Source: Monosporascus cannonballus
Lineage: Eukaryota; Ascomycota; Sordariomycetes; Xylariales
NCBI GenBank assembly: GCA_004154925.1
Contig: QJNS01000068.1
Coordinates: forward strand, 186,001 to 250,000
DNA: 64,000 nt
Reading direction: 5' to 3'
Shown: piece after piece, positions 7,640 to 63,263 of the stretch
Layout: every line of letters starts with the position of its first letter
Position numbering within the stretch: position 1 is the stretch's first letter
Made by a program: the position numbers and the translations under genes
Notes under the pieces: model-generated
Databases searched by the model: none
What the model was told of the DNA's origin: nothing
The model's input: only the letters and a program-made list of their open reading frames with translations

Positions 7640-8252
7640 TATAGATTTCCTATTTTTACCGTTCGTCGTATTAACTTAATAAAACCTTTTAACGAATTCG
7701 AATTTAAAATTGTGTTTTGTTTTTAATATTTTTGTAAAAAAGCTTAAAATTCGACAGGAAAGAAAATATTTCGCGATATAAGAAATATATAATTTGTAGT
7801 CGTTTTTGAAATAGTCCCGGCATCCTATTATATTTAGTTTGAAATATTTATTGCGAACATTAACGCCTTAAACAGAAAGAAATTTTAGCAGAAAAACGTT
7901 TACAAAAATTTTAAAGTCGTTAATTCCAGATTTAATGCTATCGCTGAAAGGAAATAAATAAGGGTTTAACGTGATTTGTCCGTTTACGTAAACAAAAATC
8001 CTTAGCTCGTTCGAAAAGCGTTATAATAGTATAACGTAATTTTTAATCTCGAGATTAGTTAAAAGAATAAGAACGAAAAACAAAGCAAGCTGCCGCCGAA
8101 GCCGCCGTAACCGCATTAACGCAAACTGCCATCGTATTGGATTTATCCAGTTTTAGTTATTTGACTAACCTTTTTTCGACATTAACTACAATACCTTTTT
8201 TAACGATTTCGTTATTATTAATAAAAGCTTTTTAAGAAATGCTAGGCGTTAA
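7640..8252 (+). pseudogene. Antisense Zn2Cys6-like ORF of element B
   Basis: Lies between B's 3' LTR and its pol, on the strand opposite pol. Upstream of the Cys cluster it reads RRINLIKPFNEFEFKI, matching IEAFNEFSYEVIP of element H. The Cys cluster is partly visible (one Cys, then RIP-derived Tyr) and needs a frameshift near 7,760 to continue as SRYKKYI. It ends with INKSFLRNARR and a stop at 8,250-8,252, matching the C-terminus of the other copies. The overlapping open stretch at 8,239-8,451 is only the complement of the pol chromodomain. Confidence 0.55.
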
Positions 8253-27089: not shown

Positions 27090-27630
27090 CATTTAATTAC
27101 ATTTTTTCGTATTTTTAAAACTTATTATACGCCTCGTTTTTTTACAATTCGTCGTATTAATGCAATAAAAGGTTTCGAAATATTTAATTTCGAAATTATG
27201 CCTTATTTTTAGCATTTTTCAAAAGGTTTCTAATGCGAAATAATAAAAAGAATTTTGCGTTATAGGGAATATATAATACGCGGTTAATTTTATAATAAAA
27301 TAGATACTTTATTATTTATTTTCGAAAATATTTACTGTTAGTATTAACTTTTTAAACGTAAAAGCGTTTAGCGGAAAAACGTTTCTTAAATCTTGAAGAT
27401 TATTAGGTGAAAAACTATTATGAATATTAAATTTTCTTTACGCGATTTATTAGTTTAGGAAAATAAACATCGTAAATTCGTTTTAAAAGTATTATAATAA
27501 AATGCGGTAATTTATAATCTTTAACTAAATTTAAAGTGTTAAAATAAAAGGTAATATAAGTTATTATTAAGACTGCAGTAATTATATTAGTACAAATTGT
27601 TATAATTCTGATATATTTAATGTTGATTTG
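27090..27630 (+). pseudogene. Antisense Zn2Cys6-like ORF of element C
   Basis: Reads RRINAIKGFEIFNFEIMPYF then Y-x2-H-x6-C-x8-Y-x2-Y-x6-Y, in register with the C-x2-C-x6-C-x8-C-x2-C-x6-C pattern of sister copies. Only the third Cys survives, and the second position is His. The C-terminal part (VIIKTAVIILVQIVIIL) is a decayed match to VAVTAAILAHIAAGW of element H. Coding strand is opposite to gag-pol. Confidence 0.6.
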
Positions 27631-42687: not shown

Positions 42688-43262
42688 CGTAACCCTAATT
42701 TGTCGGATTTCTTTCTCCAGTTCCCAAATTCGAACCTAAAGCTGCTAAATAAGGGTTTCCTAAACGCTGATCGACATTTTAACAATATTGAATATTGTTC
42801 AGAATTTAACGGTATTACTGAACAAAAGCTTGTAACGTATAACGGCTTGGCGGTTTAACCAACTATTAAACCTTAAGTTAACGGGTTTATATTAGCAAAA
42901 ATATAGTAGGAATTTCAGCAATAAATACAGTAAAGTATTACGCCTTTTAATGCCTGGTTATTACAAACGATTAGTATTAATAAATATTGCAAATTAAAGC
43001 TATTTAATTATGGGATTAATAAGCGTATATATCCTATTCCTATTAGCTAGCTTACCACCAATAAATTAATAATCCGGCTTACTGGCTTACCACTAGTGAG
43101 TTGGTAATCCGGCTTATTGGCTCACCACCAGTAAGTTGGTGATCCGGCTCACTGGCTCACCACCAGTAAGTAAGTGATCCATCACGTGACCTGCCTACCG
43201 CGCACTTGTGGTTGGATCATGACAGACCGTTTCTGGAGACCGTGGCTCGTTGGGCCATGACA
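42688..43262 (-). mobile_element. Element F: gag start, leader and 5' LTR
   Basis: 42,688-42,837 matches the gag N-terminus and leader of elements D and E (CAAAAGCTTGTAACG next to the LTR). The LTR is 42,838-43,262 (425 bp, TATAACGGCTTGGCGG to GGGCCATGACA). Its U3 holds the CTGGCTCACCACCAGTAAG repeat block. Mutation is light toward 43,262, which is the border with normal-composition DNA. The rest of F lies to the left, displaced by D and the later insertions. Confidence 0.82.
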
Positions 43263-45909: not shown

Positions 45910-46791
45910 ATGGCCGCAGCTGCCATTATCGGTCGCCCAACCACGGGCATGTGTGGCATGTGGAACGGGACCAAGGACGATCAGGAGGCATATGTCGACT
46001 TCTCGACCGGTGACACGAACATCAACCCACCACTAGAGGTCAACTGCGAGGTCCAGGACCTCCGGATCACGAAGCCAACCTTCGCCGAGGCCGGATATGA
46101 GCTGGTGGACCACAAGACCAAGATGAGCCCTGAGGACTTCCTCAACGGCAAGGATGACAAGACGCTCCTCGAGAGCGTCTACTTCCAAGAGTGCAAAGAC
46201 CTCGTGCAGAGGACCACTGGCGCCAAGGTTGTCATTCCGTACATTTTCCGCCTCCGCCACCAGAGCGTTAAGCCCGGCGGCTTCGCGACCAAGGATGTCG
46301 GCGTCAGCTCGCTACCCATCGCACACTGCGACAGGGACCCCATCTCAGGGGCCTCGTCGCTCCGGGATGTGCTTGGTGCCGAGGAGGCCGAGCGCATGAT
46401 GAAGGCATACCCACGCTTCGCGCAGGTCAACGTGTGGCGCGGCATCGGGCAGACCGTCAGCCGGTGGCCGCTGTTGCTCATCGACACCAAGGAGTGCGAG
46501 AGCTGGGACTACGAGACGCACCTGGCCAAGATCTTCCCGACCAACGACCCGCGCGTGGCCATCCGCGGCCAGAAGCCGCACGACTCCGTCCTCAAGCACG
46601 ACCCGGGCTACCGCTACTTCTACGCCAGCGACATGCGCGTCGACGAGGCCCTCGTCTTCTCGTCCTTCGACTCCGTCAAGTCCAAGGTCGTGCCCCACGG
46701 CGCCTTCTGGGATAACAGCACGCAGGACGACGCGCCCGCGCGGCGGTCCATCGAGGTCCGCACATGGGCCTTCTTCGAGGATGCCGAGTGA
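45910..46791 (+). CDS. CmcJ/AsaB-like oxygenase (GA4-desaturase-like family)
   Basis: Intact, intronless, 293 residues, normal length for this family of fungal hydroxylase/desaturase-like enzymes (relatives of AsaB, GA4 desaturase and the CmcJ methoxylase subunit), which usually modify secondary metabolites as Fe(II)/2-oxoglutarate-type oxygenases. Visible landmarks: LRITKPTFAEAGYELVDHKT (51-70); HCD at 139-141 as the likely metal-binding HxD; QVNVWRGIGQTVSRWPL (172-188), the family's NVWRP-like block; YRYFYASDMRVDEALVFSSF (234-253); VPHGAFWD (261-268) with the likely distal His263; and RRSIEVR (278-284), the likely co-substrate-binding end. The start CACAATGGC is a good fungal context. No signal peptide or membrane segment. 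High GC at third positions, no RIP damage. No tailoring neighbours lie within the window, so its substrate is unknown. Confidence 0.85.
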   Translation: MAAAAIIGRPTTGMCGMWNGTKDDQEAYVDFSTGDTNINPPLEVNCEVQDLRITKPTFAEAGYELVDHKTKMSPEDFLNGKDDKTLLESVYFQECKDLVQRTTGAKVVIPYIFRLRHQSVKPGGFATKDVGVSSLPIAHCDRDPISGASSLRDVLGAEEAERMMKAYPRFAQVNVWRGIGQTVSRWPLLLIDTKECESWDYETHLAKIFPTNDPRVAIRGQKPHDSVLKHDPGYRYFYASDMRVDEALVFSSFDSVKSKVVPHGAFWDNSTQDDAPARRSIEVRTWAFFEDAE

Positions 46792-47454
46792 GGTTGACTT
46801 GTTATGGGGCGTTTTGGCCGGAAACTAGTTGTTAGACTACCTACGAAGTAAACCCATGAGGGTTTTGGCTACTATTTGTGAATAGTTTTCTCATTCTTGT
46901 AAGAAATTCATATATTAGACTACCTACAGCTGCTCTTAATCTTCCCGATACCATTCTGCACTCCAAGGAGATGAATACTCAGGATCACATCGACCACTAT
47001 AGTATCTGGAGTACTCCCCTATATTTCTATCTTCTGTCGGATTCAGTGGCTAGGGATCGGAAGGATTCGGGCCGGGTGTGGCTAGCGGGTGGAGGTCACA
47101 GGGGTGACAGCAAATTTATATAGGAGATTAATTCCATCAGCTCTGAAGGAATACGCGTTAGCCATTATTAATAACAATCACAGATAAAATGATTCGAGAA
47201 TACTTAATATCGTAATCTCAGACTGTTTAACAGTTATAAACCCGGTTTACAAGGTTTTTTAAAAAATTTTTATTTGACCCTAAAAACCCTTTTTGCTGTT
47301 AATAAATTAGGTGCCAAACAATCGAAAATTAGGATTACGATAAATAACAGTTAAGGATCCATTATAAAAACGAAGTTCGAAAAGCTAGGTAAATAGGATA
47401 CGTAATAGGAAAAGCTTTTTAGTTATGGGCTCGAAAATATCGTTAGGTTATTTG
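46792..47454. other. 3' flank of the oxygenase gene and transition to AT-rich DNA
   Basis: No convincing gene; the open piece 46,878-47,123 shows no domain. TTAGACTACCTAC occurs twice (about 46,832 and 46,915). From about 47,150 to the LTR at 47,455 composition becomes AT-rich although no repeat could be recognised, consistent with mutation spreading from the adjoining transposon. Confidence 0.45.
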
Positions 47455-47775
47455 TGTGACGGCTAGAAGGTTTAACCAACTATTAAACCTTAGTCGTACG
47501 GGTTTTTGTTAGCAGGAGTATCGTGGGACTTTGTAGTAATGAGATAACTTAGTTACGTTTCTTAATACTAAGGGTGCAAAAGTCGTATTATAAGCGATTA
47601 GTATTAATAAATATTGCAAGTTGAAGTTATTTAAATTATAGAAATAATTAGCGTATATATTTTAACCCGGCTTATTGGCTTATTACTAATAAGTTGGTAA
47701 TCCGGGTCACTGGCTTATTACTAGTAAGTTGGTAATCCGTTACGTAACCTGCTTTACCGCGTACCTGTGATTGGG
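47455..47775 (-). repeat. 3' LTR of element G, first piece
   Basis: TGTGACGGCTAGAAGG to GTGATTGGG. The interrupted continuation resumes at 48,166 and ends at about 48,211 (GGCCATAATA). The U3 repeats GGCTTATTACTAATAAG lie at 47,665-47,745. Confidence 0.88.
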
Positions 47776-48160
47776 TGTGGCGGCTAGGCGGTTTAACCAA
47801 CTATTAAACCTTAAGTCGACGGGTTTATGTTGGCAGGAGTATCGTGGGAATCTGAGCAATGGATACAGTAACGTGTCACGTCTCTTAATACCGGAAATGC
47901 CTTATTGCAAATGATTGGTATTGATGAGTGTTGCAAGCTGAAGCTATCTAAACTATAAAACTAATGAGCGTATATATCCTTCTCCTTCTTTGCTTGATCA
48001 CTCGTGATCACGCCGTTGGTGGTGATCACGATCACTTGGGATCACCTTTGATCACTGATGATCACTGGCTTGGCAGTGATCACCATCACGTGACTCGGGA
48101 GGTGGCCCGTGTGCTCCTGCCTGACCGTTTCTTGAGACCGGAGCTTGTTGGGTCGTAACA
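47776..48160 (-). repeat. 385-bp solo LTR nested in element G's LTR
   Basis: TGTGGCGGCTAGGCGG to GGGTCGTAACA with a perfect 5-bp duplication TTGGG at 47,771-47,775 and 48,161-48,165. The host LTR reads straight across it. Its U3 block (about 47,985-48,090) is an array of TGATCAC words unlike any other LTR here. Little RIP: many CpA and GC-rich stretches remain. The open frame 47,964-48,158 is a chance frame through this array. Confidence 0.93.
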
Positions 48161-48286: not shown

Positions 48287-48861
48287 ATGTTTTTCGATAT
48301 ATTTAAGCGTTATTCTCGTAAATCCAAATAACGACTTGCTCTGGTTAATTTAATTAAATTCGAAAATTTTAACGCGATATTTTGTTTTTTCTATTTTGCC
48401 CGATAACTTAATTGCTAAATAATAAACGGGGTTTTTCGTTATAAAAAATGTGTTCGTCGAAATTATTCGTATAATGGGATAAGAATTCCTATTTTTATAA
48501 TTAATTACCATATCGTAAAGTCGAAAAGATTAAAAAAGGAAAAGCTAGTAGCCGAAAACTTTTTATCCGAAATTTTACGCGTTTTTTTTGTGTTATACGT
48601 CGTTAATGCTAATATTATTAATCCTAGGGTACGAAATATATTAAACGTATTTTTTAATTTTTGGACGATTTTAACGATTTTATTTATTTGAAGTCAGAAT
48701 TTATAGTCGAGGTACAGGCCTTAATTAAGATAAACGTTATTAATTGGAATACGGTAAACCAAGGATTTCCCTTTTTGGATCTTATGGGCTAAAATGTCAT
48801 TATTTCAGGTAGTTCCGTCGTTACTAATAAAAATTCTTTAATAGGCATTGGGCGCCAATAA
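48287..48861 (+). pseudogene. Antisense Zn2Cys6-like ORF of element G
   Basis: Begins MFFDIFKRYS at 48,287. Codons 48,383-48,472 read C-x2-Y-x6-C-x8-Y-x2-C-x6-Y: three Cys retained, three as Tyr, in the Zn(II)2Cys6 register. It continues with IVKSKRLKKEKLVAENFLSE, a basic coiled-coil-like stretch matching the other copies, and ends NSLIGIGRQ with a stop at 48,859-48,861 after at least one frameshift. About 190 codons. It overlaps the chromodomain end of the opposite-strand pol; the '+' open piece 48,848-49,039 is the complement of that chromodomain. Confidence 0.72.
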
Positions 48862-54293: not shown

Positions 54294-54696
54294 TATAACG
54301 GCTAAAGGGTTTAACCAATTATTAAACCTGAGTTGTACGGGTTTATATTAATAGAAGTATTATGGAACTTTGTAACAATAAGGTAACTTAGTTACGTTTT
54401 TTAATACCAAAGGTATAAAAGTCGTATTACAAGCAATTGATATTAATAAATATTGTAAGTTAAAACTATCTAAAACTATGGAAATAATAAACGTATATAT
54501 CTTAACCCGGCTTACTAGCTCACCACTAGTAAGTTAGTAATCCGGCTTACTGGCTCACTATCAATGAGGTGGTGATCCGGATCACTGGCTTACCACCAGT
54601 AAGTTGGTGATCCGTCACATGACCTGCCCCACCGCGCACCTGTGGTTGGGTCGTGGCAGACCGTTTCTGGAGACCGTGGCTCGTTGGGCTATGATA
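54294..54696 (-). repeat. 5' LTR of element G
   Basis: 403 bp, TATAACGGCTAAAGGG to GGGCTATGATA. The U3 repeat block (54,505-54,615) matches the 3' LTR. Light mutation in the U3 half. Confidence 0.9.
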
Positions 54697-55668: not shown

Positions 55669-55839
55669 CAAGTTGAAAGTATTTAAACTTATAGAAATAA
55701 CGAACGTAGATATCTTCTTTATTTTGGCTTAATTATTTGTAATTACTCATTCGGCGGTAATTATGATTACTGAAAATCATATTTAATTACTAATAATTAT
55801 TAACTTAATAATAATTACCGTTACGTAACCCGAAGGGTG
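55669..55839 (-). repeat. Partial LTR interrupted by element E
   Basis: Middle part of a family LTR (AACGAACGTAGATATC, then GGTAATTAT-type U3 repeats and ATTACCGTTACGTAACCC), matching 62,330-62,500. It ends at GGGTG where E's LTR begins; its remainder is not in the window. Confidence 0.75.
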
Positions 55840-56208
55840 TATGACGGCTAGGCGGTTTAACCAATTATTAAACCTTAAGTTGACGGGTTTATGTTAGCAG
55901 GAGTATTGTGGGAATCTGAACAATAAATACGGTAACATGTTATGTTTCGTAATATTAAAGGTACCTTAAGTAACGATATTATATTACAAACTGAAATTAT
56001 CTAAATTATGGAAATATTAAACGTATATATTTTTATAAATTAATTAAATCTTTATTAAACTTTGACGTTGTTAGAGATCTAATGTTATTGGATTCGGTTA
56101 GTTTTGTATGGATTTATTTGGATTTTGATGCCAAGAAAGATCCAAATTACGTGATTTTTTTTGTGGGTCCGCCCGTTTTCGTGGCCGATCTTGGGTTAGG
56201 TCGTAATA
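55840..56208 (-). repeat. 3' LTR of element E
   Basis: 369 bp, TATGACGGCTAGGCGG to GGTCGTAATA. The U3 block (56,070-56,150) is GGATT/GATCC-rich and differs from all other LTRs here. The open frame 56,082-56,420 runs across this U3 into the antisense ORF. Confidence 0.85.
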
Positions 56209-56276
56209 CGATTTCCCTTTTCGTAGGATCTTTATCCTTAAAGATTTTCCTTCCTAATAAGTTATTTTTTTTTACT

Positions 56277-56881
56277 ATGGCAGGTTATATTATTAACTGC
56301 AAACCTTATAATCGTCCCAATCAGAGAAAAAACCTAAATTCCCTGGCTACTTATCTTATCAAATTTGGTTTTAAAGTTATGCCGTATACGTTTTGTTTCG
56401 AAAATGCTACAAAATGTTAAATAATTAAAGAAATTTGTCGTTATAACGAATATATTAAGAACTATTATCGCTGTAATGTTTCTGGCGTCCTTATCGATTT
56501 CCTACGTCGTATTAAAAAGGAAAAGGATCGTTTAAATCGCAAAGAAATTGTTGTTAAAAAATACTTTTACGTTTTTAACAGGAATTAAAAAAGGATTTAA
56601 TACGCAAATAACGTAATATCGATAAGATTATTAATTGCTTTTTTCGTTTTCGTTATTAAAAAAAGTTTCTTTACGTTAAAGGAATTAAAATTATTAATTA
56701 CGGACTTTAGTTAATGGATGAACTGGATAAATAGAAACGTACGGAGGCCGAAATTCCGCTTCCCGTGCCATCTCTTATTTCCCTTAATTAATTTATTCCT
56801 AATAACCTTAACTAGGGGGCTCTTTTTGGTAATTCCGTTATCGCTGGTGAAAATTCTTTAATAGGCGCTAGGTACCAATAA
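56277..56881 (+). pseudogene. Antisense Zn2Cys6-like ORF of element E
   Basis: About 200 codons on the strand opposite pol. It starts MAGYIINCKP. Codons 56,385-56,474 read Y-x2-C-x6-C-x8-Y-x2-Y-x6-C: second, third and sixth Cys kept, the others Tyr. The downstream linker SGVLIDFLRRIKKEKDRLNR is basic and could form a coiled coil, as in Gal4-type regulators. It ends GENSLIGARYQ with a stop at 56,879-56,881; one frameshift and a few RIP stops interrupt it. It could instead be a small zinc-binding protein that is not a regulator; spacing is the only evidence for the family. Confidence 0.75.
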
Positions 56882-59800
56882 GGTTCTTGGCGGGTTCTCA
56901 GGTGTTCTCGGAATTTGGGTACTTTTTTTATTTAATTAGGTATTAAGTAAGTCCGTTTTGTTTTTGCATATCAAATATTTTTTTTATTTCGTATATTTAT
57001 TTGTTTTTTATTTTTACGTCGTTTTATACCGTATGCACTTTAATTATATTTGCTATTAATTCAAGTAAAAAAATATGAAAAATTACATAAAATTTGATTT
57101 TTGGTAAAAATTTTAATTAATAATTATTTTCAAAGATTTTCTTAACGATTTTATATGGACCGATATATTTGAAATCGAACTTTTTGCTAGGTCATTTTAT
57201 TTAAATATTTTTTATAATAAGGAAAACCATTTTCTCTTTTTCGAAAATTAATCCCTTTAATTTTTTCTGGTTATAATATTTATTTATTTGATTTCGTACA
57301 AATTTTAATTTTATTTTTATTTCTTAGTATAGCTATCGTAATTATTTTAATATAAAGATTATTTTAATATTAATTGAACCGTTATTACATATTTTTTTTT
57401 TATAAATTTTTAAAGTAAAACCAAAATTTACGTTCGCAGGTATTATCTTAATGCTTTTATAGTAATTGGTATTATAAATTAATTATGCAATTAGTAATTT
57501 TTAACCTAATTATTTTGTTCGTAATTAATATAATATTGTAAATAAGTTTTTAAAATTTAATTTATTCGTTTTGTTTATTTATTTGTTTATAATTTAAATA
57601 CGCTGAATAATTTGTGATTTAAACCGATTTATATTATTAAGTTTTATTAAAATTTAGATATAAATATCCATTTTTTATTTGATATAATTTTTATTAATAA
57701 TCCGTATGTATTAAAAATATGTTTAAAGAAAATATATACCAATTGTTCGGCGTTTATATCCTTATAATATGGTAAAAAATAGGAAAACTTTGTGAATCGG
57801 TCGACGATTACGAAAATGTTATTATAGTATATTTCCGTAACTGGATTTTCTAATATAGGAAGTTTAATAATAAAATCGAATATAACTAAATATTATAATC
57901 GTTTTACAATTAATAATTACTATAATTTTCCGTATAGCTTATGTTGTCGAGTCTTTATTCTGGCGTAAATATTATATTGCCGTATAATTTTTTATACCGT
58001 TAATTTTATTTTAGGAAAAGAATATGTACGTTAAAGTTGCTTTAAGATTTTATGGATCCCTGAATGTTTATATAACTGATGTTCGTATATTTTTCGTATT
58101 AAATCCTTTTGGTATTTTTTTTGGCATTTATATCTTATTTATTTTTTGGTTTTCTGGAAAATTATTGTTATACTGCTGGATTTTCTGGTACATATCGGAA
58201 GATATTGCCCGAATTGTCGCAATTTGTCGTAAGCATAAATATCCTTTTATGATGGTATCAAAAATTTTATGGTTAATTTTGACCAATTTCTTTTTCGAAA
58301 TTTGATCGTTTGCTTACAGTATTTATTTTGCCGTTTTTTAATCCTTTTTTGTAGATGATAATAAAGTCGAAGTTCGCCAATTTTTTTACGTATTTTAATT
58401 ATTACTTTGTAAATTCCCTGGTCGTAATAAATCGGGTAAAATTTTGATAATCTGTATAAACCTTAATTTGGTATAAATTCCCCTTTAAGAAGTGCTTAAA
58501 TTCCGAAAATGCTATAATAATAGCCATAAATTTCATATTTGGAATACCGTAATTAAGTTCGGCTTTTTTTAACTTATACGAAAAAAATATAATAAGGTGT
58601 AATTTGCCTTAATTATTTCGTTATCCGATTATTACGTTTAACGCGTAATCCGAAATATCGGTTTTTAATTTAACGGGATAATTTAGATCGTACATAATTA
58701 GTATTAGTTCGCTAATAATTATATCTTTTATATCCTAAAATACTTTTTCCGTACCTGGCGTCTATTTAAATTCGTTTTTTATAAGATTTATTAAGGGTAT
58801 AATTATTTTATTAAAATTTCGAATAAATTTCCTGTAATAATTAACAAATTCAAAAAATACTTGTACTTCTTTAATTATCGTTAATATTTGCCATTTTATA
58901 ACTGCAGTAATTTTCTTAAAATTTATTTTGATATGGTCTAAAGTAATAATATATTTTAGATATTTTATTTCCTGTATATAAAATTAATTTTCTTTTACAT
59001 TAATAAATAATCTTGCGTCCTGTAAAACTTAAAAAACCTTATGGACGTATTTTGCGTATATTTCTTTTATTTTCAAAAAAATGAAAATATCGTCGAGATA
59101 GCAAACGACGAAAATATCGAGGTATTTTTGTAATACGTAATTACTTATTTGTTAAACAGTTGCTAATATATTCGTAAATCTTATTAATATAACTAAATAC
59201 TTAAATAATTCGTATTTCATCTTAAAAACTGTTTTTTATTCGTATTTTCCCTTAATTCTAATAATGTTATATTTATTTTTAAAATCAAATATTATAAACC
59301 ATTTAATTCCGTAAAATCGGTTTTTTATTTCCGTAATTAAAAGTAATAATATTTAATTTTTCATAATAACGTCGTTTAATTGTTAATAATTAATTATATG
59401 TTGCAATTTCTTATTTTTCTTATGTACGAAAATTATAAGGTATCCTGCCGGTAATTTCGAAAATCAAATCCATTTTTTTTGTAACCGACTTTCCAGGTAT
59501 TTTTTAAAAGTATATAACTTATTTTTACTAAGGTTATAAATAAGGTAAAACTTTGTCGAAAATCCTTTTTTAAAAATTATTTTATAATCCTATTCGTTAT
59601 ATTTTGGTAATTTCGTATCGAATTTTTTTTAAAACACTGTTTGTATTTATGGTATTATGGTAATATATTGGTCAGATTTTTTAATTTTTAAAACTATTAT
59701 TTTTATTGTTTTCAATCGTTATTTAATTACTTAAGTTTCGCTTTAATAATAATAATAATATATCGTATTTTTCGTTAATACCCGTTTTTTTTCTTATATT

Positions 59801-62629: not shown

Positions 62630-63263
62630 TTGCTTTTAATTATATCGTCTCGTATTTTCAAAATTCGTTACGTTTCTCGTTCTTTTACCGTTTATCGTGC
62701 TGACCTCATAGAAGCCTTTAACGAATTTAGTTACGAAGTTATACCTTACTTTTATTGTTTGTCGAAAATCATAAGGTGTAAAATAATAGAAAATGTTTTA
62801 AGGTATAAAGAATATATTAATTAAGGTTGATCTTGTAATAATACAGGCATATTTAGTTTTTCTCTTTAAAATATTTATCGTAAATATTAATGCCTAAAGC
62901 GTAAGAAAACGCTTGCCGAAAAATAATTATTAAAACTTTAACGGTTTTACCTCAAAACTTAACGCAGATATCAAAAAAAAGATAAATAATGTTTTTTCTT
63001 ATTTCATTCGTTTACGGAAGCAAAAGGTGCTGGTTCGTTCGAAAAGCGTTACCATGGTATAACGTAGGCTCTAATTGTTAAACGAGCTGGAGAAACAAAA
63101 ATGTCGGGAACAGGAACAGTTAGAAGTTGCCGTTACGGCTGCCATATTAGCACATATCGCGGCCGGTTGGCCTGATATTCCGGTTACCGATTGGTCGGCT
63201 GTTAATTGGAACGCGTCCGTTGTTGCCAGTAAATGTTTTTTAACAGATGTTAAGCGCCAATAA
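62630..63263 (+). pseudogene. Antisense Zn2Cys6-like ORF of element H
   Basis: Starts MLLIISSRIFKIRYVSR at 62,630, then RADLIEAFNEFSYEVIP. Codons 62,747-62,836 read Y-x2-C-x6-C-x8-Y-x2-Y-x6-C. The last third is open at 63,075-63,263 (LEKQKCREQEQLEVAVTAAI ... VNWNASVVASKCFLTDVKRQ), probably the best-preserved C-terminus, with a charged coiled-coil-like stretch at its start. Stop 63,261-63,263. Frameshifts lie between about 62,840 and 63,070. Opposite strand to pol, overlapping the chromodomain end. Confidence 0.75.

What the first reader, a model, noticed from the sequence alone, without database searches (positions are those of the whole stretch)
56277..56881. Antisense Zn2Cys6-like gene carried by a chromovirus family
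Six elements in this window (1, B, C, E, G, H) hold an ORF of about 200 codons between pol and the 3' LTR on the strand opposite gag-pol. In five of them the ligand positions align as C-x2-C-x6-C-x8-C-x2-C-x6-C (with Tyr or one His at some), followed by a shared C-terminus (NSLIG...RQ or KCFLTDVKRQ types); a basic coiled-coil-like stretch is clearest in 1, E and G. The spacing is that of fungal Gal4-type Zn(II)2Cys6 domains. A retrotransposon with its own antisense DNA-binding regulator would be unusual.
Basis: partly seen in the sequence, partly recalled or inferred. Interest (0 to 1): 0.88.

Follow-up and report, generated by a model that had tools for sequence, protein, structure and literature searches.

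The report
Retrotransposon carrying its own antisense regulator
Decayed copies of a fungal retrotransposon family carry, on the strand opposite their own genes, a gene whose relatives in other fungi keep the six-cysteine pattern of fungal DNA-binding proteins; it likely acts as the element's own switch, because it varies together with a repeat-rich stretch of the element's predicted promoter.

Summary
The ORF is real and belongs to a chromovirus. In the window it is a mutated relic, one of many in this 88.8-Mb fungal genome (at least 150 scored places per piece). In 68 copies the six ligand columns are Cys or Tyr in 394 of 407 cells, the trace that repeat-induced point mutation (RIP) would leave on Cys codons. 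52 of 61 relatives keep six Cys, 42 in exactly C-x2-C-x6-C-x8-C-x2-C-x6-C; modelled relatives add a long helix, and most end acidic. Of 23 copies picked by pol chromodomain, 21 hold the gene, best match antisense each time. Transversions gather at third codon positions (27/28/55), so the frame was selected. Antisense genes at this place are known (brtn of Boty, 2011); ten searches of the held library showed me no paper calling one a zinc-cluster protein. The new point: among 23 copies the gene varies with the U3 part of the LTR (partial r 0.44, p 0.001), not with chromodomain or R-U5, and 8 of 18 U3s repeat a short word beyond chance. I read this as a self-regulating protein inherited with its own binding sites. 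DNA binding, antisense transcription and control of U3 are untested; linkage alone could give the co-variation.

The parts
   Evidence: genome-wide copies
56385..56474 (+). six ligand positions (Y C C Y Y C in this copy), spacing 2-6-8-2-6
56475..56731 (+). region collinear with the long predicted helix of intact relatives, up to the DELD motif (56711-56731), read in two frames
56841..56993 (-). chromodomain at the 3' end of pol; overlaps the last 41 nt of the antisense ORF tail to tail
   Evidence: PF00385 elsewhere in the genome
58408..58608 (-). RNase H piece of pol (PF17917, E 6.9e-12)
55838..56160 (-). 3' LTR of element G (inner end not pinned to the base; about 320 nt)
56023..56030 (-). 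TATA-like GTATATAT (as read on +) between R-U5 and U3
56032..56148 (-). U3 stretch (assignment inferred) that co-varies with the ORF across copies; its own word repetition is not significant in this copy (p 0.096)
56155..56276 (+). leader between U3 and the antisense ORF
48287..48861 (+). the same antisense ORF in element E (ligands 48383-48472), broken; its U3 holds eight GATCAC words
62639..63263 (+). the same antisense ORF in element H (ligands 62747-62836), broken
27204..27293 (+). ligand row of the antisense ORF in element C (Y H C Y Y Y)
7718..8252 (+). pieces of the antisense ORF in element 1 (two frames)

Best explanation
The ORF is the decayed copy of an accessory gene that this chromovirus family carries on the antisense strand between pol and the 3' LTR; it encodes a predicted Zn2Cys6-type, coiled-coil protein that likely binds repeat arrays in the element's own U3 and so would control the element's transcription. 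Shown here: antisense place next to the chromodomain, six-Cys pattern in natural relatives, Cys/Tyr ligand columns in the RIP-hit copies, third-position transversion excess, and co-variation of the ORF with U3 but not with R-U5 or the chromodomain. Predicted: the zinc-cluster fold, the long helix and, from it, dimerisation. Inferred and untested: that the stretch called U3 is the promoter part, transcription from the inner face of the 3' LTR, nuclear entry, binding to U3, and the sign of control (activation of its own family or self-limitation). Because the gene and U3 lie side by side at the 3' end of the genomic RNA, one template switch would move both, so subfamilies would inherit regulator and sites together, as phages inherit repressor and operators.
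For: Ligands: 394 of 407 cells Cys or Tyr in 68 copies; 71 of 72 in the 12 of 23 chromodomain-picked copies whose row reads in one frame, by a pattern that also admitted His, Arg and Ser; one of them (L103) has all six Cys. Relatives: 52 of 61 with six Cys, 42 exactly 2-6-8-2-6; two carry the UniRef name Zn(2)-C6 fungal-type. Pfam Zn_clus is the family that most members match (16 of 24 at E up to 10, best E 1.7e-4). hhalign of 23 relatives against eight Zn_clus domains of the same genome: score 22.8, above all 100 column shuffles (best 16.35) and 97 of 100 that keep Cys in place. PDB profile search: the 7 hits that span the Cys region from its start are all Zn2Cys6 proteins. Foldseek's first PDB match of both models is Pho7. 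Place: 29 of 150 chromodomain places have the ORF within 1 kb, all opposite strand; 21 of 23 with intact relatives as queries. Selection. Cassette.
Against: Only 1 of 55 relatives scanned singly passes the Zn_clus cut-off, 26 of 55 match it at E up to 1; frames of four host copies give no Zn_clus match; Foldseek and PDB sequence E-values over the Cys region are 0.18 or worse. The CGG pairs found in seven upstream stretches lie mostly at the LTR start, not in U3. Co-variation may be linkage alone, since ORF and U3 are neighbours. A first 23-copy test with a length-biased identity measure showed none (r -0.12); the nine copies new after alone give p 0.096. Third-position excess is clear in one of three clusters. 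Word repetition in U3 is not significant in 10 of 18 copies, element G among them. No expression data.
Confidence: 0.55

Rival explanations
1. The protein is a nuclear accessory factor of the replication cycle (import of the cDNA complex or choice of integration site with the chromodomain), not a transcription regulator; it binds DNA in general.
For: A review of plant antisense genes at this place proposes a part in retrotransposition and reports nuclear place for one. Predicted zinc cluster plus long helix and a conserved place beside the chromodomain fit.
Against: It does not follow the chromodomain across copies (partial r -0.01) but follows U3 (0.44).
Confidence: 0.15
2. The protein acts on the host, for example by switching host genes or opposing silencing, and its tie to U3 is mere linkage.
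For: Fungal Zn2Cys6 proteins are mostly gene regulators (recalled); linkage alone could give.
Against: Does not explain why 8 of 18 U3s repeat a short word beyond chance while R-U5 shows 0 of 18.
Confidence: 0.12
3. The antisense transcript, not the protein, matters: it pairs with gag-pol RNA and feeds RNA silencing or blocks expression; the ORF is a by-product.
For: Antisense place with a tail-to-tail overlap; LTR elements of Botrytis give small RNAs (PMC8365987, passages).
Against: Third-position transversion excess and the Cys pattern kept in 52 of 61 relatives speak for selection on the protein.
Confidence: 0.06
4. The ORF is a host zinc-cluster gene caught once by the element and carried without use.
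For: The genome has at least 111 Zn_clus matches.
Against: The gene sits in several divergent subfamilies, has its own family of relatives in many fungi, and was under selection.
Confidence: 0.04

Closest known systems
brtn, additional antisense gene of Boty-like retrotransposons (Botrytis cinerea; Zhao et al. 2011, Virology 417:248; paper not held, known to me here only from citations)
   Same: Antisense gene between pol and 3' LTR of a gag-pol element with a chromodomain; relatives reported in Sclerotinia and Monilinia.
   Different: I could not compare sequences: neither the paper nor a BRTN-named protein came up. No Zn2Cys6 domain, coiled coil or U3 link is stated in the passages I saw.
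Antisense additional ORFs of plant LTR elements (Grande, RIRE2, Retand, PvRetro13; review PMC7264820, passages and sections 5 and 7 read)
   Same: Same place and strand; nuclear role proposed.
   Different: The review says no clear similarity to other proteins has been described for these products, while naming an SMC domain and a transposase-28 domain in two; no zinc cluster is named in the sections I read.
Fungal Zn(2)-Cys(6) regulators (Gal4, Lac9, Put3, Hap1, Pho7; Pfam PF00172)
   Same: Six Cys in order with Gal4-type spacing, helix after the cluster, acidic end.
   Different: Below the Pfam cut-off in 54 of 55 members scanned singly; the C3-C4 loop has a Pro, usual there (recalled), in only 7 of 52; short proteins without a further known domain; carried by a retroelement on its antisense strand.
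Phage immunity regions (repressor with its operators; recalled, not tested)
   Same: Regulator and its neighbouring repeats vary together while flanks stay alike.
   Different: Retroelement of a eukaryote; binding and control not shown.

Membership tests
Fungal Zn(2)-Cys(6) binuclear cluster (PF00172) | six Cys as C-x2-C-x6-C-x5..12-C-x2-C-x6..8-C | tested here: met
   52 of 61 relatives with six Cys in loose spacing, 42 exactly 2-6-8-2-6; Cys or Tyr in 394 of 407 cells of 68 host copies
Fungal Zn(2)-Cys(6) binuclear cluster (PF00172) | score above Pfam's gathering cut-off (21 bits) | tested here: not met
   1 of 55 relatives scanned singly is over it (P0022, 22.0 bits; next P0045 20.1); P0024 seen only inside, P0053 and P0058-P0061 not scanned; frames of four host copies no match
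Fungal Zn(2)-Cys(6) binuclear cluster (PF00172) | profile similarity beyond the Cys spacing | tested here: met
   hhalign score 22.8; 3 of 100 Cys-kept shuffles reach it; modest
Fungal Zn(2)-Cys(6) binuclear cluster (PF00172) | two-helix zinc-cluster fold | tested here: inconclusive
Fungal Zn(2)-Cys(6) binuclear cluster (PF00172) | Pro in the loop between Cys 3 and Cys 4 (recalled as usual) | tested here: not met
   7 of 52 six-Cys relatives have one
Fungal Zn(2)-Cys(6) binuclear cluster (PF00172) | binds two zinc ions and DNA | not testable with these tools
   needs purified protein
Chromovirus (Ty3 clade) | chromodomain at the end of pol, with RT/RNase H | tested here: met
   chromodomain on the minus strand in G, made out in E, H, 1, PF00385 genome-wide, RNase H PF17917
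Boty/brtn type element | antisense gene between pol and 3' LTR | tested here: met
Boty/brtn type element | antisense protein homologous to BRTN | not tested
   BRTN sequence not held; no protein of that name among those listed

The most novel reading that the evidence does not exclude
Each chromovirus subfamily carries its own immunity-like cassette: an antisense zinc-cluster protein and, next door in U3, an array of the sites it alone recognises. Subfamilies swap or diversify the whole cassette on a common gag-pol and R-U5 backbone, so that each controls its own copies without heeding its relatives, a eukaryotic counterpart of phage immunity regions.
Probability: 0.3. Interest if true: 0.86.

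Novelty: new variant of a known kind. Interest (0 to 1): 0.66.

Why it matters
Antisense genes between pol and the 3' LTR have been known in plants and in Botrytis for years without a function; the review read here says no clear similarity to known proteins had been described. A zinc-cluster identity gives one class of them a concrete activity to test, and the U3 words say where to look for the sites. If right, fungal chromoviruses bring their own transcription factor. It would also explain a set of fungal hypothetical proteins, some already labelled Zn(2)-C6, as likely transposon genes rather than host regulators, which matters for genome annotation.

Tried and rejected
Reading the region as chance or as a shadow of pol: rejected, because only the last 41 nt overlap the chromodomain and the rest has its own relatives. 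Window ORF against the LTR pair to date the insertion: left, as the elements abut and are partly nested. Viral contigs as a source of intact elements: one scan, 600 pattern matches, no relative. Pfam on host frames: no zinc-cluster match. First selection test on 68 copies (6/7/17 transversion columns, upstream 29/26/27): those copies had been picked by protein likeness, so I repeated it on chromodomain-picked clusters (4/1/3, 18/17/40, 5/10/12; window element H was added to the third). Co-variation: 14 copies r 0.57; 23 copies with identity divided by the shorter length r -0.12, which I trace to the longer U3s of L103 and L095 scoring high with everything; the same 23 with alignment score over the longer length and a fixed 103-nt U3 gave r 0.44, p 0.001, and the nine copies absent alone r 0.37, p 0.096. 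The change of measure was made. The U3 words were noticed by eye before one search tested them; one search used 18 of 23 copies, dropping five in which the script did not find both landmarks (L100, L106, L107, L116, win1). Palindromes in U3: 34 against 24.1 expected, p 0.025, but 15 of them are two words in three copies. CGG pairs at the LTR start: in R-U5, not pursued. Structure: Toxoplasma, CENP and potassium-channel chains rank above the zinc clusters, through long helices. Literature: 10 searches used; most listings were on other subjects; in PMC9694575 Zn2Cys6 occurs only in the reference list.

Full report
What is there. It is not open: the translation holds six stops and the homology changes frame about half way, ending at NSLIGARYQ-stop (56852-56881). 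The neighbourhood is AT-rich with RIP-type dinucleotide ratios, (CpA+TpG)/(ApC+GpT) 0.66 against 1.09 in the GC-rich island, TpA/ApT 1.08 against 0.87 (the meaning of these ratios is recalled). On the minus strand a chromodomain lies at 56841-56993 and an RNase H piece at 58408-58608. The same ligand row is in elements E, H and C, in part in element 1, and not recognisable in B.

Copies in the genome. Two pieces of the window ORF each match 150 scored places, a lower bound, in this 88.8-Mb genome. I aligned 68 distinct copies (80 loci, duplicates removed). The columns at codons 37, 40, 47, 56, 59 and 66 hold Y62 C3, Y39 C27, Y42 C24, Y62 C4, Y57 C9 and C35 Y30, that is Cys or Tyr in 394 of 407 cells. 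Arg columns behave otherwise (Arg with Cys, Tyr and His). One further column, codon 98, beyond the change of frame, also shows Y57 C9. Cys codons begin with TG, which RIP turns to TA, giving Tyr; this rule is recalled. So Cys is the likely older state at all six, without any consensus being built.

Relatives. An alignment of seven natural open frames found five proteins, three of those found 24, and a wider set 50; 61 different ones in all. 52 of 61 have six Cys in loose spacing and 42 exactly 2-6-8-2-6; the nine others are fragments, or have a changed or missing Cys, or wider spacing. They run MPC-x2-C-x6-C, a second C-x2-C-x6-C, then a long charged stretch and a DELD-type motif; the last 60 residues have a median net charge of -8 among the 52. 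Named sources are Monosporascus, Corynascus, Thermothelomyces, Apiospora, Metarhizium, Colletotrichum, Pyricularia, Neoarthrinium, Staphylotrichum, Cordyceps, Thyridium and Fusarium, as hypothetical or uncharacterized proteins, two as Zn(2)-C6 fungal-type. I could not read the DNA around them, so their antisense place is not shown here.

Is it a zinc cluster. In a joint scan of 24 relatives Pfam Zn_clus is the family that most match (16 of 24 at E up to 10, best E 1.7e-4). Of 55 scanned singly 26 match it at E up to 1 and one, P0022, passes the cut-off. hhalign of 23 relatives with eight Zn_clus domains of this genome aligns all six Cys; score 22.8, above 100 of 100 column shuffles and 97 of 100 with Cys kept in place. 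In a PDB profile search the seven hits that span the Cys region from its start are all Zn2Cys6 proteins (Lac9, Put3 twice, Cep3, Gal4 three times; E 0.29 to 9.6); other hits lie on the helix, Beclin-1 reaching into the second half of the cluster. Models of P0001 and P0022 have block pLDDT 93-97 over most of the cluster (79 for residues 71-80 of P0001) and a helix of 70 and 52 residues after it. Foldseek's first PDB match of both is Pho7 (E 1.4 and 0.18). No single line is significant by itself except the shuffles; together they make a Zn2Cys6-like domain likely (about 0.9), while formal PF00172 membership is not met.

Place and spread. Of 150 chromodomain places, 29 have a match to one of the two ORF pieces within 1 kb, all 29 on the opposite strand; for the first piece 23 of 25 pairs lie 507-566 nt apart and one lies on the other side (one of 150 rows was left out in typing). 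Since the pieces see one subfamily best, I took the 26 best chromodomain places, fetched the 23 not yet held, and searched them with intact relatives: 21 of 23 hold the gene, the best match of each query always on the antisense strand, one of them weakly (L100, E 2.9e-5); two do not (L112, L115). The three already held are among the 29. Subfamilies differ strongly. L103 has all six Cys, L098 five of six. In the 12 copies whose row reads in one frame the six positions are Cys or Tyr in 71 of 72 cells (ten copies gave no row, and a match in L115, which lacks the gene, was set aside).

Selection. RIP makes transitions, so I counted columns with transversions by codon position. In 68 copies codons 1-92 give 6/7/17 and the stretch upstream 29/26/27, but these copies had been picked by likeness of the protein. 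In three clusters of mostly chromodomain-picked copies the counts are 4/1/3, 18/17/40 and 5/10/12, pooled 27/28/55 (third position, p 2e-4). The signal rests mainly on the second cluster.

U3 and the cassette. Read outward from the ORF come a leader, a stretch ending near TTACGTAAC, a TATA-like GTATATAT, and an R-U5 that begins TGTGACGGC. The stretch between TTACGTAAC and TATA is where U3 signals should be (inferred). In 8 of 18 copies it holds a 6-letter word more often than dinucleotide shuffles do (p 0.05 or less); in R-U5 0 of 18 do (five of 23 copies dropped for want of landmarks). The words differ: GATCAC eight times in window element E, CTTAAG in L103 and L114, TAAGCA in L102, AGTAAG in L097. 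Element G itself is not significant. Across 23 copies, likeness of the ORF core goes with likeness of U3 (Spearman 0.60; partial r 0.44, p 0.001, given R-U5, leader and chromodomain), while U3 goes neither with the chromodomain (-0.01) nor with R-U5 (-0.04), both of which stay alike between subfamilies; the leader goes with both ORF (0.38) and U3 (0.24). Against this stand (r -0.12 with a length-biased measure) and the smaller sample of nine new copies (p 0.096). Physical linkage can explain co-inheritance; it does not by itself explain why gene and U3 differ so much more than their flanks, or why many U3s are built of repeated words.

How it most likely works. A Zn2Cys6 protein with a helix for pairing and an acidic tail is the build of a fungal transcription factor (recalled). 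The simplest account is that it is made from an antisense transcript begun at the inner face of the 3' LTR, pairs, enters the nucleus and acts on the arrays in U3. Whether it activates or limits its family is open. Every step after the protein itself is inferred.

What is known. Antisense genes at this place are known in plants and in Boty of Botrytis (brtn). I saw the Virology 2011 title only as a citation, passages of PMC8365987, PMC4227169 and PMC5987419, and passages and sections 5 and 7 of the review PMC7264820. In PMC3248453 on fungal LTR elements a term search found no antisense and no zinc. Ten searches of the held library listed no paper that I could see linking these genes to Zn2Cys6 proteins or to U3; I saw listings and a few papers' passages, and subscription papers are mostly not held, so this is no proof of novelty.

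Noticed in passing
window 43006-43186, 47599-47779, 54439-54619: Repeat family D5 comes in pairs shifted by 35 nt, a tandem duplication inside LTRs, apparently in the U3 part; fits the U3 arrays described.
   Followed up: partly
window 47435-47775: Two LTRs abut head to tail with almost no DNA between them, as if one element had landed at the very end of another.
   Followed up: no
window 45910-46791: Open 293-codon ORF in a GC-rich island between the decayed elements; it looks like an AsaB/GA4-desaturase type enzyme (recalled, not tested).
   Followed up: no
L103 (C90:399460-400257): A less decayed subfamily: chromodomain in an open frame of 434 codons and an antisense row with all six Cys.
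   Followed up: partly
L112 (C227) and L115 (C118): Two chromodomain copies without a detectable antisense gene; lost, or a lineage that never had it.
   Followed up: no
P0032, P0037, P0041, P0050, P0054, P0055: For these 6 of 50 relatives the longest contig is 6.1-6.5 kb, close to one element, as assemblies of repeated or circular element DNA would be; other lengths range from about 0.5 kb to megabases.
   Followed up: no
window element E, U3 at about 47979-48086: In one search this U3 clusters with those of L107, L110, L117 and element H while its antisense ORF stands alone: a possible exchange between U3 and ORF.
   Followed up: no
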